DNA of 36,510 nt from a virus. The translations under genes were made by a program, and so were the position numbers. Below are positions 17,138-36,407 of this stretch, piece by piece. Position 1 is the stretch's first letter. Each line of letters starts with the position of its first letter. The DNA lies in IMG/VR virus record IMGVR_UViG_3300037296_000140, positions 1 to 36,510 of that record; one strand, given 5' to 3'. The notes beneath the pieces were generated by a model. It did no database searches. It saw nothing but the letters and a program-made list of their open reading frames with translations, and had not been told where the DNA came from.

Positions 17138-17311
17138 TTTTTAAACCTTGCCGTTTTGCCAATCAGTTAAAACACTCTGTAAAGCAAAGATAAGCGTCAA
17201 ATAGCGGCGATTCCAGCGGGTAAAATCCACAGAATTGCGATAACGGCATAATCACAAGTCGTTGTATTTAATGACGTTATTAGTTGATTGCATGGCGGCT
17301 AATATGGCGGC
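17138..17311. promoter_or_regulatory. Divergent late promoter region (gpO and gpP)
   Basis: 174 bp without a gene separate the divergent gpO-like and gpP-like genes, the P2 arrangement in which the two late promoters lie back to back and are activated by Ogr. A search by eye for the P2 activator site (TGT, 12 bases, ACA) found no match, so the activator of this phage would use another sequence. The stretch is otherwise featureless apart from short inverted matches such as tgccgtt (17151) with aacggca (17244). Confidence 0.5.
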
Positions 17312-19129
17312 ATGGCACATTCCACAGATACGATTGATCATGCAAGACTGCTTTATATCCGCGCGCACAAACCAGCGGAGATAGCGACACGTCTAAACGT
17401 GAGTGAAAGGACGGTTTACGGTTGGATTGATAAATTCAATTGGAAAGAATTACTGGCTTACGACACGGCAGAAATAGAAGTCAGCCGACGCATTAGCACG
17501 CTAACGAACCGCGAGAATAAAACTAAAGAGGAAGTGCAAGAGCTTACTTCTCTGTGTCGTATTTTTGGCAGTTTAAGACAGGACCTAGCCAAAGCCGAAA
17601 AAATTGTGGCCGAGGCCAAAGCCATTGCCGATGGCAAACCGGAAGCCGTAGAAGGCGCTGTCAATCGCGGCAATCGTCGTGGCAATAGCAAAAGAAAAGC
17701 CAAGGCAAAAAATGACATCAGCGGTATTGATATTGGGCTCTTTGATACATGGGCTCATGAAAACCTTTTCGAATACCAAAAGCTTTGGCGAGCGGTGGCG
17801 CACGATCCCGACCTTTGCCGAAATCGCTTTATCTTAAAAAGCCGCCAAATCGGCGCCACCTATTATTTCGCATGGGAAGCCTTCGAGGACGCGGTTAAAA
17901 ACGGCGATAACCAAGTATTTCTATCCGCCTCGAAAGACCAAGCACGTATTTTCAAAGGCTATATTCAAGCCTTCGCCCGCGCTCAATTCGATATCGAATT
18001 AAAAGGCCAAGACAGCATAGAGCTTTATAAAGACGGCAAACTATGGGCAACTCTGTATTTCTTATCGACGAATTCCAGCACGGCGCAGGGCTACAACGGC
18101 CATCTATATGTAGATGAAGTATTTTGGATTCATGGCTACGCCAAATTACAAAAATTGGCGTCTGGTATGGCCTCACAGAAAAAGTGGCGTCGCACGTACT
18201 TTTCTACGCCGTCCAGTTTGCAACACCCCGCTTATGAGCATTGGAGCGGTGCGAAATTCAATAAGAACCGATCCCGTAAAGTGGATATTGATCTATCCGA
18301 AAAAGTGCTTAAACAGGGCGCGCTTGGTGGCGACAAAATATGGCGCCATCTTGTTACCGTGGAAGATGCAGAAAAAGCCGGTTGCACGCTGTTCGACATT
18401 GCAGAACTCAAAGCCGAATACAGCAAGGCGGATTATGAAAACCTATTTGGTTGTAAGTTTGTTGATGATAACGAAAGCGTATTCCCGTTCTCGACGTTGC
18501 AGAAATGTATGGTCGACGCGTTTAGTAAATGGACAGACGTGGATTTTGACAGTGACAATCCAAGCCGCAATAGACCAGTGGCGATTGGTTACGATCCGTC
18601 ACGGATTCGAGACAACGCCGCCTTGGTGGTGTTGGAAATCCCTATCAGCCACGCGCAAAAATGGCGCGTGATTGAAACTGTTCAATTTAAAGGCGAAACA
18701 TCAGAATACCAAGCCGCAAGAATCGCCGAATTTTACCAGCGTTATAACGTGAAATGGTGCGGCATTGATGTGACCGGCATAGGTTACGACACATTCGATT
18801 GCTGTAACGCTCTACGTCTAAAACACATCATCCCCATTCATTATTCCGTCGCCGAAAAAACCGACCTGGTAACACGCGCGAAACGATTAATAGACGGCGG
18901 GCGCTTTGAATATGACATGGGTAATAAAGACCTATCTCAATCTTTAATGATGATTCAACAAATCACCACACAAAACGGCTCTATTACTTATGGCGCGCCC
19001 CGCAGTGGTGAAACAGGCCACGCGGATTTAGCGTGGGCGTCATTTCACGCAATGCAAGCCGAACGACAATATAACAAATCGAAACAACCCGAGAAGAAAA
19101 CCAGCGGATCACGCGTTTCTATTGGATAA
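17312..19129 (+). CDS. Terminase large subunit, ATPase (gpP-like)
   Basis: 605 aa, packaging motor. N-terminal helix-turn-helix (residues 10-45: AEIATRLNVSERTVYGWIDK). ATPase domain from about 145: Walker A region FILKSRQIGATYYF with Lys176, Walker B LYVDEV with Asp268-Glu269, a coupling-motif region TYFSTPSS near 295. Nuclease domain from about 420, with VAIGYDPSRIRDNAALVV as the first acidic patch (Asp428) and GETGHADLAWASFHAM near the end. P2 gpP is 590 aa. First gene of the plus-strand block. It is followed after 17 bp by a shortened, altered copy of its ATPase domain. Confidence 0.93.
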   Translation: MAHSTDTIDHARLLYIRAHKPAEIATRLNVSERTVYGWIDKFNWKELLAYDTAEIEVSRRISTLTNRENKTKEEVQELTSLCRIFGSLRQDLAKAEKIVAEAKAIADGKPEAVEGAVNRGNRRGNSKRKAKAKNDISGIDIGLFDTWAHENLFEYQKLWRAVAHDPDLCRNRFILKSRQIGATYYFAWEAFEDAVKNGDNQVFLSASKDQARIFKGYIQAFARAQFDIELKGQDSIELYKDGKLWATLYFLSTNSSTAQGYNGHLYVDEVFWIHGYAKLQKLASGMASQKKWRRTYFSTPSSLQHPAYEHWSGAKFNKNRSRKVDIDLSEKVLKQGALGGDKIWRHLVTVEDAEKAGCTLFDIAELKAEYSKADYENLFGCKFVDDNESVFPFSTLQKCMVDAFSKWTDVDFDSDNPSRNRPVAIGYDPSRIRDNAALVVLEIPISHAQKWRVIETVQFKGETSEYQAARIAEFYQRYNVKWCGIDVTGIGYDTFDCCNALRLKHIIPIHYSVAEKTDLVTRAKRLIDGGRFEYDMGNKDLSQSLMMIQQITTQNGSITYGAPRSGETGHADLAWASFHAMQAERQYNKSKQPEKKTSGSRVSIG

Positions 19130-19146
19130 CCAAGGGGAAATTAATC

Positions 19147-19875
19147 ATGAAAAACAAGATAGACCATATCACCAGCGAATCATTAAACGAATGGGCAGAA
19201 AAGAACCTTTTCCTATACCAATTATTTTGGCGCCAAAAGCGCCAACACCACACGCGCTTTATCAACGCATCCAGAATGATTGGCACGACTCATCACTTTA
19301 TTACTGAAGCATTTGAAAACGCGGTAAACAGTGGTGTAAATCAATTCCTTTTCGCTCAGTCTTTTAGATTTTGCGAACACCTTTGCGAACTCATCACCCA
19401 ACATGCAAAGCGTGAATTTTCCGCCACTTTGGAATACACAATACCCGATAAAGATGCGCCTTTTGTCTTAACCCTCACAAAACACGGCCAACCATGGGCA
19501 AGCTTTTACTTCATTCACCCAGACGCTTTGCAACACCCGTCTTATGCTGCATTAAGCGGCGATTGTTATATTGATCAAGTGTGTTATATCGACAATTTCA
19601 CCACGATTCTAAACATTGCCAAGGTCATTTCTTGTCACACACGACACCGCCTAACGCTGGTTAAAACCGGTGATTGGCTTGATGGCCCCGCGCGGGATCT
19701 TTGGAACAAAAACAGCCTTTACACCTGGCACCACACGCTAACCGTGGAAGATGCCACTCACATGGGTTGCGACCTAATCGACATTCCCACACTCAAAGCC
19801 GAACTTACCGAAGCCGACTATAAGCGCCTCTTCCTCTGTGAATTTATCACTCAAGCACCGATTCAGGACAATTAA
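19147..19875 (+). CDS. Degenerate terminase ATPase-domain paralogue (pseudo-ATPase)
   Basis: 242 aa; AAGGGGA ribosome site 9 bp before the ATG. It aligns over most of its length with residues about 146-384 of the terminase just upstream: WAEKNLFLYQLFWR with WAHENLFEYQKLWR, ITEAFENAVNSGVNQFLFA with AWEAFEDAVKNGDNQVFLS, TLTVEDATHMGCDLIDIPTL with LVTVEDAEKAGCTLFDIAEL, EADYKRLFLCEF with KADYENLFGCKF. The catalytic residues are lost: Walker A Lys176 is Ala41 (FINASRMIG), and Walker B Glu269 is Gln144 (CYIDQV). There is no nuclease domain. The frame is intact, has its own start, and ends 2 bp before the portal start, so it is probably made. Possible roles: structural partner or regulator of the motor, or an interference factor. 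Function unknown. Confidence 0.85.
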   Translation: MKNKIDHITSESLNEWAEKNLFLYQLFWRQKRQHHTRFINASRMIGTTHHFITEAFENAVNSGVNQFLFAQSFRFCEHLCELITQHAKREFSATLEYTIPDKDAPFVLTLTKHGQPWASFYFIHPDALQHPSYAALSGDCYIDQVCYIDNFTTILNIAKVISCHTRHRLTLVKTGDWLDGPARDLWNKNSLYTWHHTLTVEDATHMGCDLIDIPTLKAELTEADYKRLFLCEFITQAPIQDN

Positions 19876-19877
19876 TC

Positions 19878-20969
19878 ATGACGACCATTGAAAAACCACG
19901 CCAACGATTAGACAGCTCATACACCAGCACGGCTTCCGGTGTACTCATGCCCGCCGATCCGAAAAAAGGCAACTCACATGTGTTCACCTTTGGCGATCCA
20001 GAACCCGTATTAGGTAGCAATATTGCCGATTATTTAGGCGTTTTTGCCGATTCGAACGGGTATTGGTATGTTCCGCCCGTTAGTCTGGTTGGTCTAGCAA
20101 AGACGATGAATGCGAACGGCACCCATGCCAGTGTGTTGGAATTCAAACAAAATCAGCTTTTAGCCAGTTTCAAAGACAACCCGATGATTTCACGATCTCA
20201 AATACGCCACGCGTTTAAAGATTTCGAGGTGTTCGACAACGCCTACCTCTTAACGATCCGTAACTTTTTAGGCGGCATTAATCGTTATGTGCACTTACCC
20301 GCTATTAATGTTCGCGTGGGCACGGAAAACAATTATTTTCTACTTCAATCAAACGGCTCTTTCACCGAATACGCCGCCGCCGACATCATCCACTTAAACG
20401 GCGGTGATATCCGTCAAAGCATGTATGGCGTTCCGACTTACTTTGCGGGAATTAACAGCATTATGCTTGGCGAATCGGCCACGCTATTCCGTCGTAAGTA
20501 TTACGATAATGGGGCGCATACTGGCTATATTCTATTAACCTTCGACCTAGAAGACGACAAAGCCGAAGACATAGAAAGCGCCATGAAACAATCAAAGGGC
20601 CCTGGCAACCATCAATCTATGTATATCAATATGCCCGCCAGCGTGAACGGCAAACCGGGCTTCATGAAAGACCGAGTTCAATTGATCCCCGTTGGTGACT
20701 TTGGCAACCGTGACGAATACGACAAGATCAAAGAAATCACGCAGCAAGACATTCTGAACATGCACCGAGTACCCGCAGGACTTGCCAGCATCATGGCAAA
20801 CAACGCCGCAGGGCATGGGGATTTAAAGAACGTTCGTGAGGTGTATTACGACTGTGAAACCATCCCCAAACAAGCAATCTGGCAGGAACTAAACGACCAA
20901 TTACTAACACGGGCTAAAATTGGCTTTAACGATCCGCGCTGGTTGGTCGATGTAAAGGCGAATAAATAA
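19878..20969 (+). CDS. Portal protein (gpQ-like)
   Basis: 363 aa, P2 gpQ family (344 aa). It forms the twelve-subunit ring at the capsid vertex through which DNA enters. Typical segments are PVSLVGLAKTMNANGTHASV, LASFKDNPMISRSQIRHAFK, FRRKYYDNGAHTGYILLTFD and IMANNAAGHGDLKNVREVYY, the last being the family end signature. The ATG follows the pseudo-terminase stop by 2 bp. In P2, gpQ is the partner of gpP and both are transcribed together, as here. Confidence 0.93.
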   Translation: MTTIEKPRQRLDSSYTSTASGVLMPADPKKGNSHVFTFGDPEPVLGSNIADYLGVFADSNGYWYVPPVSLVGLAKTMNANGTHASVLEFKQNQLLASFKDNPMISRSQIRHAFKDFEVFDNAYLLTIRNFLGGINRYVHLPAINVRVGTENNYFLLQSNGSFTEYAAADIIHLNGGDIRQSMYGVPTYFAGINSIMLGESATLFRRKYYDNGAHTGYILLTFDLEDDKAEDIESAMKQSKGPGNHQSMYINMPASVNGKPGFMKDRVQLIPVGDFGNRDEYDKIKEITQQDILNMHRVPAGLASIMANNAAGHGDLKNVREVYYDCETIPKQAIWQELNDQLLTRAKIGFNDPRWLVDVKANK

Positions 20970-20971
20970 CT

Positions 20972-21697
20972 ATGCTGAATTTCAACAAAGGTTTATTCAA
21001 TGTTTTTGGTTCTAGTAACGCATTTCAAAGTGCGACCATGAGCAAAGCCACGGCCACCAATGGCCAATGCGGCACACTACGAGCGCGGCTTGATAAATAC
21101 TTACCCGTTGAAGGTGAAACCATTGTTGATCCAACATTACCCAACGCCACCAAGGTGACGAATTGCCAAACCGCGTTAGACAATTACGGCACCGGTGCGA
21201 ACACGCTAAACGCCCATGTACAAACGCGACTTGATTCGTTGCTGGATGACATGCAAGTGGCGAGCGCCGTTAAGTCGGTAGACAGTTACATTAGCGATGT
21301 ACCCGAAAGCTGTTACAACATCAACACGATTGCGGGCACCGCCGCCGGTGCAACGGACGGTTTATTAGCCGCTTCCACGGACATACTAAACGAACTAGAC
21401 CAAGGCATTACCGCATTTGATGGCAGCACCATGGAACTGGAAGATTTTGAAGCTTTGTTAGATAGGGTTACCGCTGAACTTGCCAGTAACTTGGTGGCGA
21501 TTTTAGGGATGATCAGTAACGAGGCGAGCATGGTTCAAAACATGTATGACACCCACATGCGCATGGCGAAATCGTTTAAAGTTTCCGCCTTGATAGATGA
21601 CCCGTGTGTAAGGCCGTTTTTGGTAAGATTGGCAGGGCCAGAACTTAGCGCCGTGCTGGTTAGTGACTTTGGTGTGGATGATTTGGAAGGGCTTTAA
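20972..21697 (+). CDS. Unknown protein downstream of the portal
   Basis: 241 aa. It is 2 bp after the portal stop and co-directional. Predicted mostly helical from about 140 on (AASTDILNELDQGITAFDG, LEDFEALLDRVTAELASNLV). It has five cysteines (for example NGQCGTL, NCQTAL, ESCYNINT, DDPCVRP), a high number for a structural protein of this phage. No transmembrane segment and no known motif are seen. A virion or packaging-accessory role follows from operon position only. It ends just before the first copy of the 28-bp boundary repeat. Confidence 0.75.
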   Translation: MLNFNKGLFNVFGSSNAFQSATMSKATATNGQCGTLRARLDKYLPVEGETIVDPTLPNATKVTNCQTALDNYGTGANTLNAHVQTRLDSLLDDMQVASAVKSVDSYISDVPESCYNINTIAGTAAGATDGLLAASTDILNELDQGITAFDGSTMELEDFEALLDRVTAELASNLVAILGMISNEASMVQNMYDTHMRMAKSFKVSALIDDPCVRPFLVRLAGPELSAVLVSDFGVDDLEGL

Positions 21698-21703
21698 ACG
21701 GTC

Positions 21704-21731
21704 AATATTTAAAAACGTGACGTGTCACGCT
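21704..21731. repeat. 28-bp boundary repeat, copy 1
   Basis: AAT-ATTT-AAAAA-CGTGAC-GT-GTCACG-CT pattern; 27 of 28 positions match the other three copies at 22247, 24534 and 24830. The arms CGTGAC (21716-21721) and GTCACG (21724-21729) are inverted around GT. Here it lies between the convergent ends of the 20972 gene and the HNH nuclease gene and contains the nuclease stop codon. Read on the minus strand the arms are followed by five T. Confidence 0.9.
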
Positions 21732-22225
21732 TTTAATCCATATTTCACCAACACCCTTTTAAAGCGCGCTTTGTACTGCTCTATGTTTTTAGGTGGTAAC
21801 CATTCATCTAATCCCTTTGCGCCTTTCTGCCTGTTCAGTCTTACTTCGACGGCCACTAGGTTTATCGGATCATTGGCAAACTGTTTGCGCTTCTCTTTAC
21901 TCCACTCATTCGCCCCGTGATCCCATGCCCATTTCAATGGCACGATGTGGTCTATGTCTAGCTTGGCCGCATCAAATATCACTTCACCGGAATACATAGA
22001 AATCCAACGACCAAAAACGACGCGACATTGCTTGTCTGTATTGAATCGAACTGGCGCGGTAGACATTGAAATAAGAATCTCTTGGCGGGTGTTTTGGCAA
22101 TCGCGGTCAATATCCGCCCAGCCGCTACCAAATTCACTTCGCTTGTATTTCGTCACGCCTGCGAGCGCATTACCCGCTATCAATAACGACAATACAAGAC
22201 ACACCAAGACACGTGTTTTTTTCAT
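21725..22225 (-). CDS. Secreted HNH/DUF1524-type nuclease
   Basis: 166 aa. Signal peptide: MKKTRVLVCLVLSLLIAGNA with a probable cut after LAGNALA (about residue 22). The mature part has an HNH-like centre LDIDHIVPLKWAWDHGANEW (His at DH of IDHIVP), followed by NDPINLVAVEVRLNRQKGAK, where the Asn-rich part completes the beta-beta-alpha metal motif as in DUF1524/GmrSD-type and related endonucleases. Two Cys (DRDCQNT and KQCRVVF) could form a disulfide in the periplasm. The gene sits between two copies of the 28-bp repeat and is opposite to its plus-strand neighbours, as expected for a lysogenic-conversion gene. Role inferred: periplasmic DNA degradation, possibly against incoming phage DNA. Confidence 0.8.
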   Translation of the reverse strand: MKKTRVLVCLVLSLLIAGNALAGVTKYKRSEFGSGWADIDRDCQNTRQEILISMSTAPVRFNTDKQCRVVFGRWISMYSGEVIFDAAKLDIDHIVPLKWAWDHGANEWSKEKRKQFANDPINLVAVEVRLNRQKGAKGLDEWLPPKNIEQYKARFKRVLVKYGLKA

Positions 22226-22246
22226 TTTCTCTCTACTTATTAGGTG

Positions 22247-22274
22247 AATTTTTAAAAACGTGACGTGTCACGCT
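22247..22274. repeat. 28-bp boundary repeat, copy 2
   Basis: AATTTTTAAAAACG then TGACGTGTCACGCT; identical to copies 3 and 4. It lies 21 bp upstream of the HNH nuclease start, between that gene and the divergent zinc-ribbon membrane gene. Confidence 0.9.
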
Positions 22275-22327
22275 TTTGTAAATGTTTTATAGTGCGACTT
22301 TTATAAAACTAAATTAGGGAAGGAACC

Positions 22328-22960
22328 ATGGCGCTAAAACCGTGTAAGGAATGCAAACAAGAAGTCTCAACGAAGGCGAAATCTTGCCCCCACTGTGGTG
22401 CGAAAAATCCGACGGTATCAGGTAAAGACACCGCAAAAGGATGCCTTGCATTTATTGTCTTGTTTGCTGTTCTCACTGTCATTATCACGTCATGTAGCGA
22501 CGACACAGAACCAACACAACAAGATATCCAACCAATTCAACAAACCACCCAAGAAAAGCCAGATAACGCCAACACAATAAAGCTCTTAAAAATATCTAGC
22601 ACCACACTTCACAACAAACCAGCCAAAGCGATTGTGTATGGTGAAAACAATGAAAATAGCTGCTATATAAAGCTCTACACTACATCCATTCAACAAGGTT
22701 ACGAATACACATCCCAAAAAATCTACAGTAGTGATATTTCGGCAGACTGCTCCATCAACGGCGTATATTATTCAACATCATCAAAACACCCGACCACAGT
22801 AAGTATAAAAATAAACAGTTTAGACACCGAATCACAACAAGCTGTTTTAACCGTTTATCTGAAATTAGTTTCCGCCACATCCAAAGGTGACAGCTATTAC
22901 ACGATCCCAGAAACACAGCTAAAACTAAGCGGCGATCAATTTACCGCTTTCACCCAGTAA
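22328..22960 (+). CDS. Zinc-ribbon membrane protein
   Basis: 210 aa. N-terminal zinc ribbon with Cys6, Cys9, Cys20 and Cys23 (PCKECK and SCPHCG), a membrane segment at about 38-55 (KGCLAFIVLFAVLTVIITSC), a Gln/Pro-rich linker (PTQQDIQPIQQTTQ) and a beta-rich C-terminal domain from about 75. The ribbon should be cytoplasmic and the C-terminal domain periplasmic. An AAGGA ribosome site lies upstream. It is a single transcription unit between repeat copy 2 and a strong terminator, the pattern of a moron gene. A surface or superinfection-exclusion role is possible but not shown. Confidence 0.75.
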   Translation: MALKPCKECKQEVSTKAKSCPHCGAKNPTVSGKDTAKGCLAFIVLFAVLTVIITSCSDDTEPTQQDIQPIQQTTQEKPDNANTIKLLKISSTTLHNKPAKAIVYGENNENSCYIKLYTTSIQQGYEYTSQKIYSSDISADCSINGVYYSTSSKHPTTVSIKINSLDTESQQAVLTVYLKLVSATSKGDSYYTIPETQLKLSGDQFTAFTQ

Positions 22961-22990
22961 TAAAACGCCCCATCATTGGGGCGTTTTATT
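22959..22990. terminator. Bidirectional terminator
   Basis: Perfect 13-bp arms aataaaacgcccc (22959-22971) and ggggcgttttatt (22978-22990) around a 6-nt loop, with A/T runs on both flanks, between the convergent genes ending at 22960 and 22973. The stop codon of the minus-strand gene lies inside the stem. Confidence 0.93.
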
Positions 22991-23425
22991 ACTTATCACA
23001 TTTCTAATAAATGGCACGATTTCATCTTCTAGTGGTGATCCGTGCTTATCTAGATATTTATTAACGCCTTGGTCACTCACTAACACCTTAAATGCCCATC
23101 CATCAACAAAACACCTAAACTCCCTAAACACACCAAAATTTTCATTTTCACTATCTCGCGAACGGTTTTTTCCTGCCTTTTCCGGCGACTCAAACGGCGC
23201 TAAATATGGTTTTCTACTTGTTAACACAACACGACCATTATCCGCATTTACTTCTTTAAAATCTTGTATATGCCGGTTATGAAGATGACCATCAAATAAC
23301 CTAGGTATAAGGATATATTCGGTGCTTTCTAGTAAACCCTTTTCATGCCTGCATTTCATGCACTCTCTATTTCCATTAATACCCGGCTTAAAGTTGTGCT
23401 TTTTACATGTAATTTCTTCTTTCAT
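22973..23425 (-). CDS. Unknown protein with N-terminal zinc motif
   Basis: 150 aa. Four potential zinc ligands near the start (ITCKKHNF, then RECMKCRHE). The rest is hydrophilic with YLAPFESPEKAGKNRSRDSE in the middle and LDKHGSPLEDEIVPFIRNVI at the end. No homology is recognised. It ends in the terminator hairpin at 22959-22990 and its start has a GGGGTGG stretch upstream. Position at the end of the minus-strand early block suggests a small phage accessory protein. Confidence 0.65.
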   Translation of the reverse strand: MKEEITCKKHNFKPGINGNRECMKCRHEKGLLESTEYILIPRLFDGHLHNRHIQDFKEVNADNGRVVLTSRKPYLAPFESPEKAGKNRSRDSENENFGVFREFRCFVDGWAFKVLVSDQGVNKYLDKHGSPLEDEIVPFIRNVISNKTPQ

Positions 23426-23492
23426 AAACCACCCCGTTTTTTCGCTTTATTCATCATAAACTTTTTTCGTTACAGGTCTACATTACGCCCTG

Positions 23493-24026
23493 TCATGGTT
23501 TAATAACCACAGGCTGCCTTTTCACGTTAATGGGTTGTGTAAGCCAGTAACGATCAAACAGACAATGGTCGTCAAGCTGGCAATTTGGATCTAAACAATG
23601 ACGGCAACGGGGTTTAGTTACTGATTCCGCTTCAATATCTTCTATAGCCCGCTCATTCGCGTTCGCCGGAGGACGACTAAACTTACCTTCTAACCTTATT
23701 TTTGCAGCAGCTTTTCTTATTTCCTCAGAAGCCTTCTTGATTGCTTCCGCATCAAACCTAAAATCATGAAAGTAACGGTTTGTTGGTAATTCGATAGATT
23801 CCGCGACGCGTTCGCCTAGCAAGCGTTTGTTGTCGCATTCTATAACGGCCATTTTCAAAAGTAGGTCACCAATCAGGTGTTTTGGTATCACGTAGCTCTC
23901 CACGATGCCGTGTCTAACGATTTGCAGCGTATCGGCACAATTTACCGCCGTGGCTAGCGTTCCGTTGTCTACCTGCCCGAGGGTGATTTTTTGGGCGTGT
24001 TCTATGATGGTTTCTAGGTCTTTCAT
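23493..24026 (-). CDS. Unknown phage protein with Cys/His cluster
   Basis: 177 aa. Helical N-terminal part (ETIIEHAQKITLGQVDNGTL), a region EAIKKASEEIRKAAAKIRLE with helix character, and a C-terminal cluster CRHCLDPNCQLDDHCLFDRY with several possible zinc ligands. It follows the DUF3850-like gene with a 1-bp gap, so the two are co-transcribed. Family not recognised. Confidence 0.7.
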   Translation of the reverse strand: MKDLETIIEHAQKITLGQVDNGTLATAVNCADTLQIVRHGIVESYVIPKHLIGDLLLKMAVIECDNKRLLGERVAESIELPTNRYFHDFRFDAEAIKKASEEIRKAAAKIRLEGKFSRPPANANERAIEDIEAESVTKPRCRHCLDPNCQLDDHCLFDRYWLTQPINVKRQPVVIKP

Positions 24027-24027
24027 G

Positions 24028-24513
24028 CTATACCCCTTTCCCTTCCAACAGTTTAACCGCCTTTTCCGCCTTCTCTCTTGCCATATCCACGTAATGAATG
24101 GCGGTATCGTCTTCCGTGTGATTACTGACCATGCCGATACATTCCGCCGCTTGCTCTATTTCGTGTTTTGCCTCTTCAATGCGCTCAATCTTCTTTTGCA
24201 TTGCTGGCCATGCACATTGACACTGTGTCGAATCACCATGGCATTGATGGCAAACAGGCGCCATGCTCAACATGCAGTAACCAACAGGCAACCCCCAATC
24301 ACCACAATCAACAATGTGTGTAATGACTCGACGCACATTCTCTTTGAACATACTGCCACCCAGAACACTTCCCCCTTTTATCGAAAATGGGTAAAACTCT
24401 AAAATGTCGCCAACCTTGTAATCTCGGTCATTAATACGGATCTCGGCTTTTTTCTCACCAATTACCAAACTACCCCAGAACATTGGATCTATTTTCAATT
24501 CATGTACTTTCAT
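24028..24513 (-). CDS. ASCH/DUF3850-type domain protein
   Basis: 161 aa. Residues 1-85 match the DUF3850/ASCH pattern (KVHELKIDPMFWGSLVIGEK, then KAEIRINDRDYKVGDILEF), a PUA-like fold thought to bind RNA. The rest has Cys-rich PVCHQCHGDSTQCQCAWP (likely a metal site) and a helical coiled-coil-like end. The start is preceded by a GGGGAG site. Sits between repeat copy 3 and the 23493 gene. Target RNA unknown. Confidence 0.75.
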   Translation of the reverse strand: MKVHELKIDPMFWGSLVIGEKKAEIRINDRDYKVGDILEFYPFSIKGGSVLGGSMFKENVRRVITHIVDCGDWGLPVGYCMLSMAPVCHQCHGDSTQCQCAWPAMQKKIERIEEAKHEIEQAAECIGMVSNHTEDDTAIHYVDMAREKAEKAVKLLEGKGV

Positions 24514-24533
24514 TGCTATTACTCCCCAGTGTT

Positions 24534-24561
24534 AATTTTTAAAAACGTGACGTGTCACGCT
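24534..24561. repeat. 28-bp boundary repeat, copy 3
   Basis: AATTTTTAAAAACG then TGACGTGTCACGCT; identical to copies 2 and 4. It follows directly on the stop codon (TAG, 24560-24562) of the 24560 gene and lies 21 bp before the start of the DUF3850-like gene. Confidence 0.9.
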
Positions 24562-24808
24562 ATTCGGTTCTTGATCCGCCAATCATGGCGAGCAAACGCG
24601 GCTCTATTGGCTCGCGTTGTTGCTGTTCGATTGTCTCTTCCATGCTTTTCGCATACTCAAAAACACCATCATCAGAAACAAGAATCCCATCACTCGCGCC
24701 CGTTTTAGGGTTGCGGGTAACGGCCAGCCCTAGCGGGTGCAATACCTCTTGGTTGATTCGGGCCATCAAACCCAATTCTGCTAATTGGTTCCAATCTATT
24801 GATTTCAT
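24560..24808 (-). CDS. Small conserved phage protein
   Basis: 82 aa. MKSIDWNQLAELGLMARINQ is followed by EVLHPLGLAVTRNPKTGASD and GILVSDDGVFEYAKSMEETI. This pattern recurs in small early proteins of many phages (a D-W-N/K start and a Pro-Leu-Gly-Leu core), but no function is known. It is a one-gene cassette with a 28-bp repeat on each side. A GGGGGAA ribosome site precedes the start. Confidence 0.72.
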   Translation of the reverse strand: MKSIDWNQLAELGLMARINQEVLHPLGLAVTRNPKTGASDGILVSDDGVFEYAKSMEETIEQQQREPIEPRLLAMIGGSRTE

Positions 24809-24829
24809 AATGCGTTCCCCCGTTTGGTT

Positions 24830-24857
24830 AATTTTTAAAAACGTGACGTGTCACGCT
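24830..24857. repeat. 28-bp boundary repeat, copy 4
   Basis: AATTTTTAAAAACG then TGACGTGTCACGCT; identical to copies 2 and 3. It lies 6 bp after the stop of the 24864 gene and 21 bp before the start at 24808, the same spacing as copies 2 and 3. Confidence 0.9.
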
Positions 24858-24863
24858 ATGGTT

Positions 24864-25256
24864 TTACAATCTCAGTTTCTTTTCTTCCCGCGTGTACCAG
24901 CATTCAGCCACGCCTTTTAATTTCGGTATGCCTAGGCCATTTTTGCAGCCCATTGGTAATGGCTCGCCGCAAAAGTCGCATTGTCCTAAGTGCTTTTTCT
25001 CTTCATCCACCCGCTTCTTTTCACGACGGATCAAGGTAGAGATAAATTCTTCAGGACTGTAAGGCTCGGCCCCGCCGCGATAGGCGCATAGCTCGGCCAG
25101 TGTTTCGGACTCGGTTTGTGATAATGGAACTCGGTATTCATGAATACCGAGTTCAGATTTTTTTTCGGCATCCCGTTGGCGTTTAGCGCGCTGGCGCTCT
25201 TTGTCTTGCTGGCGCTTCTTATCAGCCTTGGCTTTGGTTTTGGCGTCCACACTCAC
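24864..25256 (-). CDS. Unknown protein with basic N-terminus and C-terminal zinc motif
   Basis: 130 aa from a GTG start at 25256 that overlaps the Ogr stop (GTGA), with an AAAGGGG site upstream. The first 35 residues are Lys/Arg/Gln-rich (KAKADKKRQQDKERQRAKRQ). A middle region (YRVPLSQTESETLAELCAYR, then EEFISTLIRREKKRVDEEKK) looks like a ribbon-helix-helix-type segment, and a C-terminal CDFCGEPLPMGCKNG motif looks like a metal site. Probably nucleic-acid-binding. Translationally coupled to ogr. Family not recognised. Confidence 0.7.
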   Translation of the reverse strand: MSVDAKTKAKADKKRQQDKERQRAKRQRDAEKKSELGIHEYRVPLSQTESETLAELCAYRGGAEPYSPEEFISTLIRREKKRVDEEKKHLGQCDFCGEPLPMGCKNGLGIPKLKGVAECWYTREEKKLRL

Positions 25257-25507
25257 ACCCCTTTGATGTTCAGTTGTTCTTGCTGCTCTAGAATCTTGCG
25301 CGCCATGCTAATCACGTCGCGTTGCGGTGGGTTTACGTAGTGCTTAAATTCCATACCAAAAACAGAACGCGCGCCGCATCCGTCCTTTGCCATGCACTGC
25401 ACGTAAAGTTCCTTATAAAACACGTCTGTTATCTCTTTTGCTAAATCGTTACTGTTGGTGATTACCGCTTTACCCTTACAGTGAGGACATTTAACCCGTA
25501 CTGACAT
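25253..25507 (-). CDS. ogr: Late transcription activator, Ogr/Delta family
   Basis: 84 aa from ATG at 25507, which has a clear GGAGG site 8 bp upstream. The longer frame to 25603 overlaps the replication gene in another frame and is unlikely to be translated. Zinc-finger pattern: VKCPHCKGKAVITNSND, then VQCMAKDGCGARSVFG, i.e. CxxC...C(x5)C as in P2 Ogr, ending with MEFKHYVNPP like the YIVKPG of Ogr. In P2 this protein binds upstream of late promoters and contacts RNA polymerase alpha. It should turn on the divergent late blocks around 17138-17311. It overlaps the end of the replication gene. Confidence 0.82.
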   Translation of the reverse strand: MSVRVKCPHCKGKAVITNSNDLAKEITDVFYKELYVQCMAKDGCGARSVFGMEFKHYVNPPQRDVISMARKILEQQEQLNIKGV

Positions 25508-27275
25508 TTGCGCCACCTCCACCACTTCCGGTTGGCTGATTTCTAAGGCCGAAACTCGGCCCCGTACACTTATTGACACGAGTCCAAGGGACGGCTTCGC
25601 CATCCTCTAAAGAAGAAGACCCTTTTTTACGTACAGTCCATTCGTGAAGTCGAGTAATCAGCACATTGATTTCATTCGCCACGCCTTTTACTGCCTTGAC
25701 CATTTCCCCATATTGATTTTCTACTTCATCGCTATAGTGAATTTTCAACGCTTGATCACGGCCAGCAAACACGCCGCCCATCAGCTTTACGAATCCGCTA
25801 TAGTCGGCACGGTTGGCCGCGTGATAAATGTCTTTAAAAAACTCAGGCGCATTGTCTTTGCCGAACTTGCGCAACTCGCGCCAAATCGTAACGGACGCAC
25901 CGCCAACAAACTGAAACTGACGAATACGATTCAAACGTGCCCACGCCACAATGCGATTGGCCGCATCACTACCGCTTCGACCTGTCTCGTGGTCGGTATC
26001 TACATGTTTACCGTGGATGTTTTTAGAAATGTATTTGACGATGTAACCCACTGCCGAACCTTTGGCCGGATCAATCTTTTCGACTTTAACGCGGTACTTT
26101 TTAGCACCCGCTTCATTGCCATCTTCTTGCAGGGCATAATGATGAAACGCGTCTAAAAATTCTTTTGCTCGGCTCGGTTGAACCCACAACATTAAATGCC
26201 AATGTGGGCACCCGTCATGATGCGGCTCTACCGTGCGTAAACCATAAAACGGAATGCCATGGCGCTCGCACCATGAACGGAATCGACACCAAACCCCGTT
26301 CAAATAGGTATGCGCTTCCCGCACATCTGGACACCCTGCACGCCAGTATTTTTTATTTCTCACACTGATATGCTTATCGTCTTTTTTGATTGATGTAATG
26401 GGATGGTACTTAGACGGAGCGGTTAGCGTGAGAAAGTAACCTTGGTGTCCTTGCTCTTCTGATATCTCTTCCAAGCCTTTGGCACGAACAACTAATTCTG
26501 AAAAACGGTTATCAGCATTGGACACACACTTTTCAGACAATTCAGCCAACGTGAAGGATTGGCCCAGTTCGTTGATTGCTTCCCAACCTTCTAAAAAGGC
26601 TTTGTTATTGGCTTTCTGTTTTTCCGCTTTGTTCAATGCCCAGTTAGACACATACGGCGATTTGTAACGCTCTACTTCGCCGCACTCCCTCAAGATATCT
26701 TCAACAATTACCCATTGCTTTTTCGCCTGTCGAGTCCACCATTCTGGCGTAATCATTCTCGCCATTAACCCCAACAACTTATCGTTGTCGTCCCAACCTT
26801 TAAAATTGACACCGACCTCAACAAGTTGGGATTGCATAAAGCCTTTTACCGCTTCAATGCCGTTTTGAACATAAATGCCCATCATCTCGACTTCAAAATA
26901 ATTACTGCGTTTTTCAGCCCATGACGCCAAATGTTCGCCGTCAAATTCCGTGATCATCTTGTCGCAAAAATGCAGACGTTTAACCACATGACGCAACCAC
27001 GCCATAGTCGTTCCTTTCCGCTCTTTGCCGCGCACTTCCAATTCATGCAAACGGTCACATTCTTTACCGATAGGCCCACGCATTACCGTGACTTTCGCCA
27101 ATAATTCAAAGCGCTCAATCACACCACGCAACCAATTGTTGGCCGCAACATAGCCCTTTTCTTGGTCTAACTCGTCAAGACGCTTTTGCAAAACAGTAGC
27201 GTCCTCACGACTTACACCGCTCAATAATTCCGCGCGCCAAACCAAACACTGTTCCGTTGGCATTGTGTTAATCAT
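25491..27275 (-). CDS. Replication initiation endonuclease (gpA-like, HUH)
   Basis: 594 aa from ATG at 27275, chosen because GGAGG lies 9 bp upstream; the longer frame to 27296 lies inside the preceding gene. P2 gpA-type rolling-circle initiator: HUH metal motif CPHWHLMLWV (His358 and His360), and a two-tyrosine motif YIVKYISKNI (Tyr411 and Tyr415). These tyrosines nick one strand and join the ends after a round. The conserved SGHxGYFLTLTAPSKYHP-like stretch (GYFLTLTAPSKYHPI) is a family signature. The nicking site is usually inside the gene itself. P2 gpA is 761 aa, so this version is smaller. Confidence 0.92.
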   Translation of the reverse strand: MINTMPTEQCLVWRAELLSGVSREDATVLQKRLDELDQEKGYVAANNWLRGVIERFELLAKVTVMRGPIGKECDRLHELEVRGKERKGTTMAWLRHVVKRLHFCDKMITEFDGEHLASWAEKRSNYFEVEMMGIYVQNGIEAVKGFMQSQLVEVGVNFKGWDDNDKLLGLMARMITPEWWTRQAKKQWVIVEDILRECGEVERYKSPYVSNWALNKAEKQKANNKAFLEGWEAINELGQSFTLAELSEKCVSNADNRFSELVVRAKGLEEISEEQGHQGYFLTLTAPSKYHPITSIKKDDKHISVRNKKYWRAGCPDVREAHTYLNGVWCRFRSWCERHGIPFYGLRTVEPHHDGCPHWHLMLWVQPSRAKEFLDAFHHYALQEDGNEAGAKKYRVKVEKIDPAKGSAVGYIVKYISKNIHGKHVDTDHETGRSGSDAANRIVAWARLNRIRQFQFVGGASVTIWRELRKFGKDNAPEFFKDIYHAANRADYSGFVKLMGGVFAGRDQALKIHYSDEVENQYGEMVKAVKGVANEINVLITRLHEWTVRKKGSSSLEDGEAVPWTRVNKCTGPSFGLRNQPTGSGGGGANVSTG

Positions 27276-27837
27276 GCTCAATCGCCTCCACACCATCTAA
27301 CGCACGAAAACTTTGTGCGATATCACGCATGACAATCTGGTAATCAGAATGACCTTCGAACATTCCCGCGACCCGCTCCAAAATAACCATCTTGTTTGCC
27401 AAGGCATGAGCCGCTGAATTCACCGTCCAAGACTGTGTAAAGTGCGGTCCAATAACATCGCGCATGGTGCCTTTTTCAAGCAGCAAGAATTTATCTAACT
27501 CTCCTTTTACCGCCGCATTCACCATTCGCATCATCATGTCTAATTCGAAGCAACAAAGCGGGTGCGCTGACTGCTCAAAAAAACCTTCGAACGAATACCG
27601 CCCCTTATCAACAGAACTGGAATTAAAAGACGGCTTATCACGCAACTTCATCAATGTGTATTCTGGTGACCAGATACTCATGAAGGTTTCACCCGCAATG
27701 CCGCCCTTGTCTATCTCATGACACACGAACATCTTTTGCCAATGGCTAGCGATAAGACGCAACACGTTTAATTCCGTTGTCGTGAACGAAAATAAAATCG
27801 ACTGAACTTTGTTTAATGGTTTTGGTTGCACTGTCAT
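27268..27837 (-). CDS. Unknown early protein upstream of replication gene
   Basis: 189 aa, AGAGG site upstream of the ATG at 27837. It overlaps the replication gene start by 8 bp, so translation is coupled. Mostly helical, with NVLRLIASHWQKMFVCHEID and FELDMMMRMVNAAVKGELDK; no known motif. Its first 92 bp also encode the end of the 27746 gene in another frame. A role in replication control is possible from its position in front of gpA. Confidence 0.72.
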   Translation of the reverse strand: MTVQPKPLNKVQSILFSFTTTELNVLRLIASHWQKMFVCHEIDKGGIAGETFMSIWSPEYTLMKLRDKPSFNSSSVDKGRYSFEGFFEQSAHPLCCFELDMMMRMVNAAVKGELDKFLLLEKGTMRDVIGPHFTQSWTVNSAAHALANKMVILERVAGMFEGHSDYQIVMRDIAQSFRALDGVEAIEHD

Positions 27838-27973
27838 TGCGTTGAACCTCTAATGCTTTCTTTTCTTCTTTCCACGAACGCCATATTTTCTGACGTACTT
27901 CTTGCGGCGGCATGATCCGCAACATGGCTTTTAGCTGTTCGTATGACAGCTCAAGGGGTGTGATAATTTGCAT
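27746..27973 (-). CDS. Small unknown protein with extensive overlap of next gene
   Basis: 75 aa from ATG at 27973 with a GCGAGGA site 7 bp upstream. First part MQIITPLELSYEQLKAMLRI reads like a real domain; the last 30 residues are encoded inside the start of the next gene in another frame (27746-27837). The frame further upstream (to 28039) overlaps the zinc-ribbon gene and is not needed. If both are translated, 92 bp are read in two frames. The start of the overlap could be a replacement tail. No function known. Confidence 0.6.
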   Translation of the reverse strand: MQIITPLELSYEQLKAMLRIMPPQEVRQKIWRSWKEEKKALEVQRNDSATKTIKQSSVDFIFVHDNGIKRVASYR

Positions 27974-28212
27974 GTGTCGTCCTCGCGGTTCATGGCGTCT
28001 AGTTCCTCGCCACTTACTAAGAATTCGGAATGGCCGCACTCAGGGCAGAACTTGGCACCACCCAATAAACCAAACCATCCACCTAAGTGGCTTTTGGTTC
28101 CTTTCCAACCGCAATCGATGCAGTCGTAAGTCTCGGCGCCGTCTTTTTGAATAGCTTCGAATTGCTGTATTTGCGCTTCACGCGCTTGATGATTTATCTT
28201 TGCTGACATCAT
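27931..28212 (-). CDS. Small zinc-ribbon protein
   Basis: 93 aa. A zinc ribbon with CIDCGWKG and FCPECGHSEF (two Cys pairs at about 36-39 and 76-79) separated by a Gly/Trp-rich loop (HLGGWFGLLGGAK). It could bind nucleic acid or act as a protein adaptor. The N-terminal 30 residues are helical. Start ATG at 28212 overlaps the stop of the upstream small gene. Not Ogr-like in spacing. Function unknown. Confidence 0.7.
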   Translation of the reverse strand: MMSAKINHQAREAQIQQFEAIQKDGAETYDCIDCGWKGTKSHLGGWFGLLGGAKFCPECGHSEFLVSGEELDAMNREDDTCKLSHPLSCHTNS

Positions 28213-28346
28213 AAAAAACCCACTTTGATAAACATCGAAAATTCCGCCACACTACCAACAACCAAAAATAAAGCAGACGCCGCGGCCAAGGCCATGCGGC
28301 GGTTATGTCTTTTTCTGGCTGTTTTTTCCGTGAAATCGAAATGCAT
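28209..28346 (-). CDS. Small single-TM protein (45 aa)
   Basis: 45 codons, MHFDFTEKTARKRHNRRMAL followed by AAASALFLVVGSVAEFSMFI. A positively charged cytoplasmic start is followed by one membrane segment (about 19-40). The ribosome site GGGGGTG is 5 bp upstream. The stop codon overlaps the start of the next gene in TTATGATG, so the two are coupled. It fits the many tiny membrane proteins of phage early regions; function unknown. Confidence 0.65.
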   Translation of the reverse strand: MHFDFTEKTARKRHNRRMALAAASALFLVVGSVAEFSMFIKVGFL

Positions 28347-28359
28347 ACATCACCCCCAA

Positions 28360-28785
28360 CTATCGCCCGTGAGCAATCACGGCCAGACGCGTTCTTTCTA
28401 ATGAGCCAATGGCTTCATCCACTTCTTTCAATACTTTGGAACGTTCGCGCTCGGTCAATCGATTGTCGGCCAAGGCTTCTTGCACCACGGCGAATACGTC
28501 GCCGCACTCTTTGCCTTGGTTGATCATGGCGTCAAGGATGGAACCGGGCGCGTCTTTCAATGTGCTTAACACCAGCTCGGCTTGCATGGCGCGCAACACG
28601 ACGCCGTTACCGGTTAGGATCGTGATGGCGAATAGCTCATGAACGGTTAATTTATTGAAGGCGTTTTCAGGGTTGACCTTGTTGGTCAATATTTTGCGGC
28701 TTATACCGAGCGTGTCGGCTATTTGCCCAGCGTCCATTTCAGACGTATGGACAAGGTCGTGCAGTGCTTTTTGAAAGTGATCCAT
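28360..28785 (-). CDS. Phage regulatory protein, CII-like (CP76 family)
   Basis: 141 aa from ATG at 28785 (MDHFQKALHDLVHTSEMDAG), placed 9 bp after a GGAG site in gtctggggagaga. The open frame continues upstream into cro but is not expected to be used. Helix-turn-helix DAGQIADTLGISRKILTNKV, then FNKLTVHELFAITILTGNGV. The pattern matches the phage regulatory CII family of P2-like and related phages, which controls repressor or early-gene transcription. Second gene of the minus-strand early operon after cro. Confidence 0.78.
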   Translation of the reverse strand: MDHFQKALHDLVHTSEMDAGQIADTLGISRKILTNKVNPENAFNKLTVHELFAITILTGNGVVLRAMQAELVLSTLKDAPGSILDAMINQGKECGDVFAVVQEALADNRLTERERSKVLKEVDEAIGSLERTRLAVIAHGR

Positions 28786-28822
28786 CTTCATTCTCTCCCC
28801 AGACAATGGCATGTTTTTAAAA

Positions 28823-29023
28823 CTAAGCGGTTTGTTTATGCTGACAGCTATACAAAGAAGCATCGTATTTAAGATCGCCTTCTGTAATTCGCTCTAGCTT
28901 CATGGCGTGAATCTCTGGGATTCGATCTGGCCAACAAGAAATCGCGGCACGAGAAAGATTTAGCGTTCTTGCAACCTCGGACTGATTTCCACCAAAGTGT
29001 TCAACAACAGTTTGTTTGAGCAT
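28823..29023 (-). CDS. cro: Cro-like repressor
   Basis: 66 aa from ATG at 29023, with an AAGGGG site upstream; a TTG at 29032 is less likely. Helix-turn-helix GGNQSEVARTLNLSRAAISC, then WPDRIPEIHAMKLERITEGD, the pattern of Cro/DicC-type small repressors, whose C-terminal tail contacts the second subunit. It is divergent from the CI gene. Promoter TTGACA-17-TAGTGT lies at 29084-29056 with a palindromic operator over its -10 and start site. Confidence 0.85.
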   Translation of the reverse strand: MLKQTVVEHFGGNQSEVARTLNLSRAAISCWPDRIPEIHAMKLERITEGDLKYDASLYSCQHKQTA

Positions 29024-29041
29024 TTTTACCAACCCCTTAAC

Positions 29042-29057
29042 GTTTAGTTAACCGAAC
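29042..29057. promoter_or_regulatory. Operator O1 at the cro promoter
   Basis: GTTTAGTTAACCGAAC; an almost perfect palindrome (its complement reads GTTCGGTTAACTAAAC). It overlaps the last bases of the -10 box of the cro promoter and the start site. The same sequence motif occurs at 29841-29856 over another promoter. A further half-palindrome (CTAATCGTTAG, 29059-29069) lies inside the promoter spacer and may be a second site. Confidence 0.75.
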
Positions 29058-29084
29058 ACTAATCGTTAGGCAAATGTATGTCAA
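29056..29084 (-). promoter_or_regulatory. Promoter of cro and the minus-strand early operon
   Basis: On the minus strand: TTGACA (29084-29079), 17-bp spacer, TAGTGT (29061-29056). The -35 is a perfect consensus. The operator O1 starts within the -10. It drives cro, the CII-like gene and the replication block. Confidence 0.78.
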
Positions 29085-29126
29085 GACGTTCTAACATAAT
29101 GTTTTGTTTAATTGACGGTTATTCAT

Positions 29127-29777
29127 ATGACTACAGGCCAAAGAATTTCGAAAAAGAGACAAGAACTAGGCATCTCGCTTAGAGCGCTTGGTCGATTAAT
29201 TAGCGCCGCACCCGCAACAGTTTCACTATGGGAGCACGACACAAACCAACCAAATAGTGAAAACCTACTCAAACTAGCCAAAGCCCTAAACACCACGCCC
29301 GAATGGTTAAGACATGGACACGGCGTAAAAGAAAGCAAAAATATTTACAATATTGAGCCGGCATCAAAACAACCAGCCACAAGAAAACTACCCGTAATTA
29401 GCCACGTTCACGCTGGAAACTGGGCAGAAGCAATAGACTACTATGCGGCTGGAGACGATGTAGAATGGGAAGATGCACCTTACTCAACCAGCACAAACGC
29501 TTTTTGGTTGCGCGTAGTCGGCGACAGCATGACGTCACCTGTTGGATTAAGCATCACAGAAGGAATGTTAATATTAGTTGATCCCGACATAGCGCCCGAA
29601 AATGGAAAGCTAGTGGTTGCAAAGCTAGACGGAACCGATGAAGTTACCTTTAAGAAACTGGTTATTGATGCTGGTCAAAAATACTTAAAACCTTTAAATC
29701 AATCCTACCGCCCGATTGATATTAACGGCAATTGCCAGATTGTCGGCGTCGTCACAGAGCTAAAGCTTAAACTCTAA
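29127..29777 (+). CDS. cI: CI-type repressor with LexA-like autoprotease
   Basis: 216 aa from ATG at 29127; a TTG at 29112 extends the frame but has no ribosome site. N-terminal helix-turn-helix (residues 5-55: LRALGRLISAAPATVSLWEH). C-terminal S24 domain: Ala96-Gly97 cleavage site (VHAGNW), Ser134 (VVGDSMTSP) and Lys166 (VVAKLDG), so the protein should cleave itself in response to RecA. It probably binds the palindromes at 29042-29057 and 29841-29856. It is divergent from cro. Confidence 0.9.
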   Translation: MTTGQRISKKRQELGISLRALGRLISAAPATVSLWEHDTNQPNSENLLKLAKALNTTPEWLRHGHGVKESKNIYNIEPASKQPATRKLPVISHVHAGNWAEAIDYYAAGDDVEWEDAPYSTSTNAFWLRVVGDSMTSPVGLSITEGMLILVDPDIAPENGKLVVAKLDGTDEVTFKKLVIDAGQKYLKPLNQSYRPIDINGNCQIVGVVTELKLKL

Positions 29778-31449: not shown

Positions 31450-31465
31450 AAATTTCAGACACAAA
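31450..31465 (+). repeat. TTTCAGACA motif, copy 1 (before terminator)
   Basis: AAATTTCAGACACAAA directly after the stop of the 31080 gene and directly before a terminator hairpin. The same 16 bp are at 31910-31925, and a 14/16 version is at 33084-33099, always before a terminator. Confidence 0.75.
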
Positions 31466-31489
31466 AAAGCCGCCAATCACGGCGGCTTT
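31466..31489 (+). terminator. Terminator after the 31080 gene
   Basis: Arms AAAGCCGCC (31466-31474) and GGCGGCTTT (31481-31489), 6-nt loop, followed by CTTTTAT. 21 bp after the stop codon. Confidence 0.85.
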
Positions 31490-31909: not shown

Positions 31910-31925
31910 AAATTTCAGACACAAA
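31910..31925 (+). repeat. TTTCAGACA motif, copy 2 (before terminator)
   Basis: AAATTTCAGACACAAA, exact repeat of 31450-31465. It overlaps the first bases of the following terminator stem. Confidence 0.75.
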
Positions 31926-31952
31926 GGAGGCCGCAATTGTGCGGCCTCCTTT
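31923..31952 (+). terminator. Strong terminator after the early plus operon
   Basis: Twelve-bp perfect arms AAAGGAGGCCGC (31923-31934) and GCGGCCTCCTTT (31941-31952), 6-nt loop, followed by GTTTGT. Ends the plus-strand early operon. The next bases to 32000 are a row of degenerate TTGTTTGTC units with no gene. Confidence 0.9.
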
Positions 31953-36404: not shown

Positions 36405-36407
36405 AAA
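36384..36407. other. attR core (24-bp direct repeat)
   Basis: Exact copy of 104-127. The sequence to its right is the native upstream of trpG; that to its left is phage DNA. Confidence 0.92.

What the first reader, a model, noticed from the sequence alone, without database searches (positions are those of the whole stretch)
21704..24857. Four near-identical 28-bp palindromic repeats at gene boundaries
Copies lie at 21704, 22247, 24534 and 24830 (three identical, one with a single change), with CGTGAC-GT-GTCACG at the centre. They flank the HNH gene and the 24560 gene on both sides. In copies 2, 3 and 4 the distance to the next minus-strand start is the same (21 bp). Possible roles: intrinsic terminators for the minus strand (arms followed by T5), sites for a regulator of these genes, or boundary sequences that let single-gene cassettes move by homologous recombination as in lambdoid phages.
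Basis: partly seen in the sequence, partly recalled or inferred. Interest (0 to 1): 0.75.

Follow-up and report, generated by a model that had tools for sequence, protein, structure and literature searches.

The report
Overlooked phage regulator's DNA binding sites

Summary
The four copies are real, at the stated places, far above chance. They are not a host repeat and not mainly terminators. Their conserved core is a 12-bp palindrome, GTGAC-N2-GTCAC, that follows one gene: the 130-aa regulator at 24864-25256 (minus), PHROG 536, whose stop codon lies beside copy 4. Phages fetched only because they encode a PHROG 536 protein carry the exact palindrome: 12 of 13 named phages and 50 of 53 viral contigs of one homology search (19 of 45 in a second, A051-like set). 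It is absent from 8 of 8 named phages without the gene and 75 of 75 P2-Rep-related contigs. The 2-bp gap is specific (88 copies against 0-6 for each other gap), sites persist beyond 1 kb from the gene, and the regulator is the only family found in all 11 compared site-bearing phages. Epsilon15's annotated CI operators differ. In Marinomonas phages one copy supplies the -35 box of a cargo-gene promoter at fixed spacing (7 of 7). Best reading: operators of a ribbon-helix-helix/zinc-knuckle regulator that silences promoters and probably blocks elongation at gene boundaries (stoperator-like). Binding and mode of action are inferred, not shown.

The parts
21704..21731 (+). copy 1 of the 28-bp repeat (palindrome 21717-21728), one mismatch, between converging genes
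22247..22274 (+). copy 2 (palindrome 22260-22271), divergent region between HNH gene and Zn-ribbon cargo gene; right half is the -35 box of a + strand promoter
24534..24561 (+). copy 3 (palindrome 24547-24558), between DUF7415 gene stop and DUF3850 gene start
24830..24857 (+). copy 4 (palindrome 24843-24854), directly after the stop codon of the regulator gene
24864..25256 (-). 130-aa regulator, PHROG 536; predicted basic helix, ribbon-helix-helix, C-terminal four-Cys knuckle; proposed binder of the repeats
   Evidence: phrog_536, E 1.9e-25; model; co-occurrence
22265..22293 (+). promoter-like GTGTCA-17-TATAGT, -35 box inside copy 2
   Evidence: same spacing in 7 of 7 related phages
22328..22960 (+). 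cargo (moron-like) gene, Zn-ribbon plus membrane segment, downstream of copy 2
22955..22995 (+). strong intrinsic terminator closing the cargo gene
   Evidence: -27.3 kcal/mol
21725..22225 (-). HNH/GmrSD_C-domain protein gene flanked by copies 1 and 2
24560..24808 (-). DUF7415 gene flanked by copies 3 and 4
24028..24513 (-). DUF3850 gene, starts 20 nt after copy 3
25253..25603 (-). Ogr/Delta-like zinc-finger gene upstream of the regulator in the early operon

Best explanation
The repeats are DNA operators of the phage's own PHROG 536 regulator, encoded next to copy 4. The protein is predicted to be a ribbon-helix-helix dimer with a C-terminal four-cysteine (probably zinc) knuckle, and each subunit would read one GTGAC half of GTGAC-N2-GTCAC. 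The regulator gene lies in the early lytic operon, so it should accumulate after induction. At copy 2 it would sit on the -35 box and shut off the cargo-gene promoter; at copies 1, 3 and 4, which lie in transcribed gene boundaries, it would act as a roadblock that shuts off or insulates the downstream genes, in the manner of mycobacteriophage stoperators. Shown by computation: the repeat, the protein-site co-occurrence, its spacing specificity, and the promoter overlap. Inferred: binding itself, the sign of regulation (repression), and the roadblock. I put about 0.85 on 'cognate site of this protein' and about 0.45 on 'repressor and roadblock'.
For: Co-occurrence: 9 phages chosen only for a PHROG 536 homologue hold 18 exact gap-2 palindromes, in 8 of 9, against 0, 1, 2, 0 for gaps 0, 1, 3, 4; 53 contigs found by homology: 50 of 53, counts for gaps 0-6 = 1, 6, 88, 5, 0, 0, 3 in 753 kb, about 0.7 expected per gap; named phages 12 of 13 with the gene, 0 of 8 without (Fisher 4e-5). 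Not linkage alone: beyond 1 kb from the gene, 18 sites in 11 of 13 named phages, 0.44 expected. Negatives: 75 P2-Rep-related loci, 940 kb, none with the gene, 0 gap-2 sites. The regulator is the only family found in all 11 compared site-bearing phages; next is an integrase, in 7 of 10 others. Centre dinucleotide agrees within genomes: 38 of 57 pairs, shuffle mean 13.3, 0 of 10,000. In 37 of 116 regulator-positive loci the TGA of G-TGA-C is the regulator's own stop codon, and 49 of 116 have a site within 40 nt of it. Epsilon15 CI operators are ATTACC..GGTAAT, not this motif. Marinomonas: 5 of 48 genomes encode the regulator; the 4 with close homologues have exact copies in prophages and the fifth (38% identity) has AT-centred variants. 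Promoter overlap with fixed 17-nt spacing in 7 of 7. RHH-like model: best match PutA RHH domain, Z 5.3, rmsd 1.4, 45 of 45 residues.
Against: No binding data. One named carrier (C4_PE001) has no exact site. In the A051-like set only 19 of 45 loci have an exact gap-2 site and a gap-3 form (GTGACCGCGTCAC, GTGACACCGTCAC) is as common, 25 against 22. One Marinomonas Rep-positive prophage without the gene has one site (L166), G022 has one exact copy without the gene or Rep, and three viral contigs found by the pattern (L007, L011, L017) show no regulator gene in their 6-10 kb. The RHH fold rests on a model of pLDDT 78.8 with Z near 5, which the tool itself calls middling, and no Pfam RHH match. Repression is only one sign: a weak -35 could equally mean activation. 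Loci within the sets are related to each other, so counts overstate independent events.
Confidence: 0.7

Rival explanations
1. The sites and the regulator work positively: the protein, bound just before terminators or promoters, lets RNA polymerase start or read through into late genes, so it is a late-gene activator or antiterminator.
For: In many carriers the gene lies between early and lysis/packaging genes (annotations). In epsilon15 the order is regulator stop, site 39612, annotated terminator 39646-39672, then terS. Intergenic sites have a terminator just downstream in 13 of 51 cases against 80 of 693 ordinary gene ends. The profile of the family weakly matches TraR and YbiI, which are C4 zinc proteins (E 0.012 and 0.036).
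Against: N15 and phiKO2 have both this gene and a separately annotated late activator/Q. In the window the late genes would use the Ogr-like protein (inference from P2). Several sites lie about 19-20 nt before a start codon, with no -10 box placed for activation. The terminator excess is weak and the control was crude.
Confidence: 0.25
2. The repeats are compact intrinsic terminators of the minus-strand operon, and the palindrome is kept for its RNA hairpin.
For: Minus-strand RNA folds to -9.1, -9.2, -6.7, -6.7 kcal/mol and is followed by U5; T5 is kept in nearly all Marinomonas copies.
Against: The simple terminator scan reports three copies on the plus strand and none on the minus strand. 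The L151 cargo-promoter copy and one L159 copy lose the outer pair while keeping GTGAC..GTCAC. Phages outside Marinomonas keep the palindrome without the T run. Hairpin function does not predict co-occurrence with one protein family.
Confidence: 0.1
3. The repeats are recombination joints that let single-gene cassettes come and go; any protein link is incidental.
For: Different genes occupy the slot after the regulator between two copies: DUF7415 in the window and L157, a 66-aa membrane protein in L152; other relatives have one copy and no cassette.
Against: Does not explain the 12-bp core kept across phages without shared flanks, nor the -35 spacing. Most sites elsewhere flank no exchangeable gene that I could see. 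May be true as a side effect.
Confidence: 0.05
4. A host or other phage protein (CI, CII, Ogr, MatP) is the binder.
For: matS has the same GTGAC half-sites.
Against: matS needs a 3-bp centre, the repeats have 2. Epsilon15 CI operators differ. P2 (ogr), and VP882, PY54, VHML, K139 (annotated CII-like) have no site. No chromosomal enrichment in Marinomonas.
Confidence: 0.05

Closest known systems
Mycobacteriophage L5-type stoperators and repressor (cluster A)
   Same: Many copies of one short site, in promoters and in short intergenic spaces of one phage genome; proposed to stop initiation and elongation (PMC9283540, passages seen).
   Different: L5 sites are asymmetric 13-mers bound by the immunity repressor as a monomer; here a symmetric 12-bp palindrome, mostly 1-4 exact copies, linked to an RHH-like protein that is not the immunity repressor.
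Start-associated sequences (SAS/ESAS) of cluster K mycobacteriophages
   Same: Repeated sites next to start codons, mostly in one orientation, some with inverted repeats, conserved across relatives (PMC3203893, passages seen).
   Different: SAS is asymmetric GGGATAGGAGCCC; no regulator is tied to it in the passages seen.
MatP/matS
   Same: GTGAC half-sites; MatP has an RHH domain (recalled) and the MatP-matS complex appears low in the first fold search.
   Different: matS is 13 bp with a 3-bp centre and is a chromosome-organising system (PMC3116907, passages seen).
PHROG 536 ('transcriptional regulator'); N15 gp46, epsilon15 gp49, phiKO2 Gp45
   Same: The window protein is a member by profile.
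   Different: No binding site or role was found for the family in the searches run.
P22 Arc/Mnt RHH repressors
   Same: Phage repressors on operators in the phage genome (operators annotated; the RHH class of Arc and Mnt is recalled).
   Different: Arc/Mnt act in one immunity region and lack a four-Cys knuckle (recalled).

Membership tests
PHROG 536 | profile match over most of the protein | tested here: met
   residues 15-130 to profile 3-113 of 115, E 1.9e-25
ribbon-helix-helix proteins | strand-helix-helix core | tested here: inconclusive
   Predicted H47-61 and H68-90 after an extended segment; top three VIA rows are RHH proteins (PutA Z 5.3, ParD2 5.2, AtaR 5.0), but Z is middling and Pfam gives no RHH match
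ribbon-helix-helix proteins | dimer binds palindromic DNA through the paired strands | not testable with these tools
   needs binding or a complex structure
TraR/DksA-type C4 zinc proteins | C4 finger joined to an RNA-polymerase-binding helix | tested here: inconclusive
   Family profile matches TraR at E 0.012 with three Cys aligned; NCBIfam TIGR02419 E 0.15, below its cut-off
stoperators | several copies in short intergenic spaces and promoters of one phage | tested here: met
   window copies and relatives; only 32 of 83 non-Marinomonas sites lie inside ORFs against 86% of random positions
stoperators | asymmetric site, orientation follows transcription | tested here: not met
   core is a palindrome; only the Marinomonas T5 flank is oriented
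stoperators | bound by the immunity repressor | tested here: not met
   epsilon15 CI sites differ; by the record's annotation only
stoperators | halts elongation | not testable with these tools
   needs a transcription assay
matS | 13 bp, GTGAC-RNY-GTCAC | tested here: not met
   2-bp centre in all four copies
intrinsic terminator | stable G+C-rich hairpin then U run | tested here: inconclusive
   weak hairpins with U5 in Marinomonas; the simple scan does not list them on the minus strand
host dispersed repeat | many copies across host chromosomes | tested here: not met
   exact 16-mer in 5 of 48 Marinomonas genomes, 4 of them in regulator-bearing prophages
Rfam families | covariance-model match | tested here: not met
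   no match at a gathering score in 17000-29200

The most novel reading that the evidence does not exclude
PHROG 536 proteins are DNA-anchored elongation factors: the RHH part parks the protein on GTGAC-N2-GTCAC sites at gene boundaries, and the TraR-like C4 knuckle engages the RNA polymerase that arrives there, so that each site becomes a protein-dependent pause, stop or read-through point. Such a system would be shared by P2-like, N15-like, epsilon15-like and marine siphophages as a common late-switch layer, distinct from N/Q antitermination and from stoperators.
Probability: 0.12. Interest if true: 0.85.

Novelty: new variant of a known kind. Interest (0 to 1): 0.68.

Why it matters
It gives a testable DNA target to a regulator family that is widespread in tailed phages, annotated only as 'transcriptional regulator', and present in well-studied phages (N15 gp46, epsilon15 gp49, phiKO2 Gp45). 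If the pairing holds, it exposes a regulatory layer of these phages that sits on gene boundaries and, in Marinomonas phages, on cargo-gene promoters, and it allows the regulon of a carrier phage to be read from sequence.

Tried and rejected
Host-repeat explanation: rejected. In that scan the counts at two mismatches are close to the reversed-pattern control.

Intrinsic terminator as the main role: weak. Terminator adjacency of sites in other phages: 13 of 51 intergenic sites against 80 of 693 gene ends, suggestive only.

CI, CII and Ogr as binder: see rivals. MatP: spacing wrong.

A general promoter role: the -10 at fixed distance holds for 7 of 7 divergent Marinomonas copies, and no other Marinomonas copy shows it. 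In N15 and phiKO2 a TATAGT lies one base nearer at one site, with no plus-strand gene annotated there for N15. Not pursued.

The first structure model (10 sequences, pLDDT 69.5) and its fold search were weak; the second was better. Sequence search of solved structures with the single protein found nothing.

Literature: the palindrome strings (one unrelated hit), PHROG 536 and the three gene names (none), telomere-phage and late-promoter terms (passages of PMC10612081 hold no such site), YbfE and RHH terms, Marinomonas prophage terms. Only open PMC papers were searched, so the original genome papers of N15, phiKO2 and epsilon15 were not seen.

The Providencia burhodogranariea hit is a separate chromosomal repeat.

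Rows dropped: the 99-site list removes near-identical flanks; the 83-site location count also removes the Marinomonas loci. L161 2646 is in the integrase coding region and is probably chance. phiKO2 and VPHZ6 were read in part only.
Full report
Observation. The palindrome occurs in the window only there. Copies 1, 3 and 4 overlap or directly follow stop codons of minus-strand genes; copies 2, 3 and 4 lie 21, 20 and 21 nt before minus-strand starts.

Where it is. The window is a 36.5-kb virus record, a P2-like temperate phage: Rep, Ogr/Delta, CII, S24 repressor and integrase. Its relatives lie in Marinomonas. The 28-mer's core was found in 12 stretches of viral contigs; nine of these (L008-L010, L012-L016, L018) belong to this phage group, with L012 and L016 from one contig, and 8 of the 9 show the regulator gene within the fetched stretch. 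The other three (L007, L011, L017) are of higher G+C, share one flanking sequence, and show no regulator gene in their 6-10 kb. In the species-genome collection a looser pattern hit only two Marinomonas species and one Providencia species. In 48 Marinomonas genomes an exact 16-mer occurs in 5. Four of those (G001, G002, G032, G043) encode a close homologue of the window's regulator; another genome with a 38% homologue, G021, carries the AT-centred form twice. Fourteen of 48 genomes have a Rep relative; nine Rep-positive prophage stretches without the regulator hold one palindrome in all.

The pairing. Gene maps showed a copy directly after the stop codon of the gene at 24864-25256 in nearly every relative (L018 is an exception, with a small membrane-protein frame in between). 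That gene belongs to PHROG 536. I therefore fetched phages only because they encode such a protein. Nine named phages with 31-46% identical homologues hold 18 exact GTGAC-N2-GTCAC in 8 of 9, against 0, 1, 2 and 0 with gaps 0, 1, 3 and 4. Fifty-three contigs found by homology hold 88, in 50 of 53, against 0-6 for each other gap. Forty-five contigs of an A051-like set and P12026 hold 22 in 19 of 45, and 25 with gap 3: this set is weaker, with one-mismatch forms common. N15 gp46, epsilon15 gp49, phiKO2 Gp45 and a TL-2011b protein are homologues, and all four phages have two or three exact sites. In all, 12 of 13 named carriers have sites and 0 of 8 non-carriers (lambda, P22, P2, PY54, VHML, phiHAP-1, K139, VP882; Fisher p = 4e-5). 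VHML shows a borderline protein hit (E 0.007). Seventy-five P2-Rep-related loci without the gene have no gap-2 site.

Three controls bear on this. First, sites more than 1 kb from the gene remain: 18 in 11 of 13 named phages where 0.44 is expected, and 40 in 31 of 53 contigs where 0.61 is expected. Second, the regulator is the only family detected in all 11 compared site-bearing phages; the next best is an integrase, found in 7 of 10 others. Third, the free centre dinucleotide agrees within genomes in 38 of 57 pairs, shuffle mean 13.3, as expected if each regulator has its own preference, though copying of sites within a genome would do the same. In 37 of 116 regulator-positive loci the site's TGA is the regulator's own stop codon. 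These loci are related, so counts are not independent events.

The protein. Predicted: a basic N-terminal helix, an extended segment, helices 47-61 and 68-90, and a tail with four conserved cysteines. The closest folds are RHH proteins: PutA (Z 5.3, rmsd 1.4, 45 of 45), ParD2 and AtaR. This is suggestive, not proof. The family profile weakly matches TraR and YbiI over the knuckle (E 0.012 and 0.036). A chromosomal protein (the name YbfE, a LexA-regulated protein, is recalled) matches the N-terminal part of the family profile in most Marinomonas genomes.

How it may work. In seven of seven divergent Marinomonas copies the right half of the palindrome is the -35 box of a promoter with a 17-nt spacer and a 5-of-6 TATAAT match, in front of different cargo genes, while the spacer sequences differ; no other Marinomonas copy shows this. 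In L152 and L160 a strong terminator-like hairpin precedes the site, and the window's cargo gene ends in one. That fits a repressor of cargo genes. Elsewhere sites lie after stop codons, or about 20 nt before starts (for example K303 terS), places where a bound protein would meet elongating polymerase. I therefore favour repression plus roadblock. Activation or antitermination remains possible: in epsilon15 the order regulator, site, terminator, terS invites it.

Secondary features. The oriented T5/A5 flank is a Marinomonas feature. It makes the minus-strand RNA a weak terminator-like hairpin and makes the upstream side of the copy-2 promoter A/T-rich. Between two copies after the regulator there is DUF7415 (window, L157) or a 66-aa membrane protein (L152), so gene exchange at the repeats is plausible.

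Known or new. Stoperators are the nearest functional analogue and SAS the nearest positional one; both differ in site symmetry and binder. No paper found in open PMC names this site or gives the family a role; older genome papers were not available to me.

Noticed in passing
window 31450-31477, 31910-31937, 33084-33111: A second boundary repeat, about TTTCAGACA(C/T)AAA, three copies on the plus strand; two stand directly before intrinsic terminators in the CI-side operon, and the third lies at the end of gene 32311-33111.
   Followed up: partly
window 19147-19875: A 242-aa protein behind the large terminase is a truncated paralogue of it (32% identity over 262 columns, E 6e-35).
   Followed up: partly
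L098, L101-L120 (Providencia burhodogranariea, G003): 36 chromosomal copies of CGTGACATGTCACGTTTT at up to one mismatch, often between converging genes; 14 in one other species, two or fewer in the other 22 of 24 genomes. The same palindrome plus T run as in Marinomonas phages; relation unknown.
   Followed up: partly
L219-L263 (A051-like phages): Gap-3 palindromes GTGACCGCGTCAC (14) and GTGACACCGTCAC (10) are as common as the gap-2 form; the second fits the matS consensus.
   Followed up: no
window 4759-4771: GTGACATTGTCAC, a match to the matS consensus, inside a tail gene.
   Followed up: no
window 104-130 and 36384-36410: 27-bp direct repeat, 96% identical, at the two ends with the integrase gene beside one: likely attachment sites.
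   Followed up: no
window 33534-34908: A pair resembling a HigA-like antitoxin with a metallopeptidase-type domain and a small partner, a possible toxin-antitoxin module (for the first; partner judged by eye).
   Followed up: no
window 21725-22225: The HNH/GmrSD_C protein begins with a signal-peptide-like segment, unusual for a nuclease acting inside the cell.
   Followed up: no
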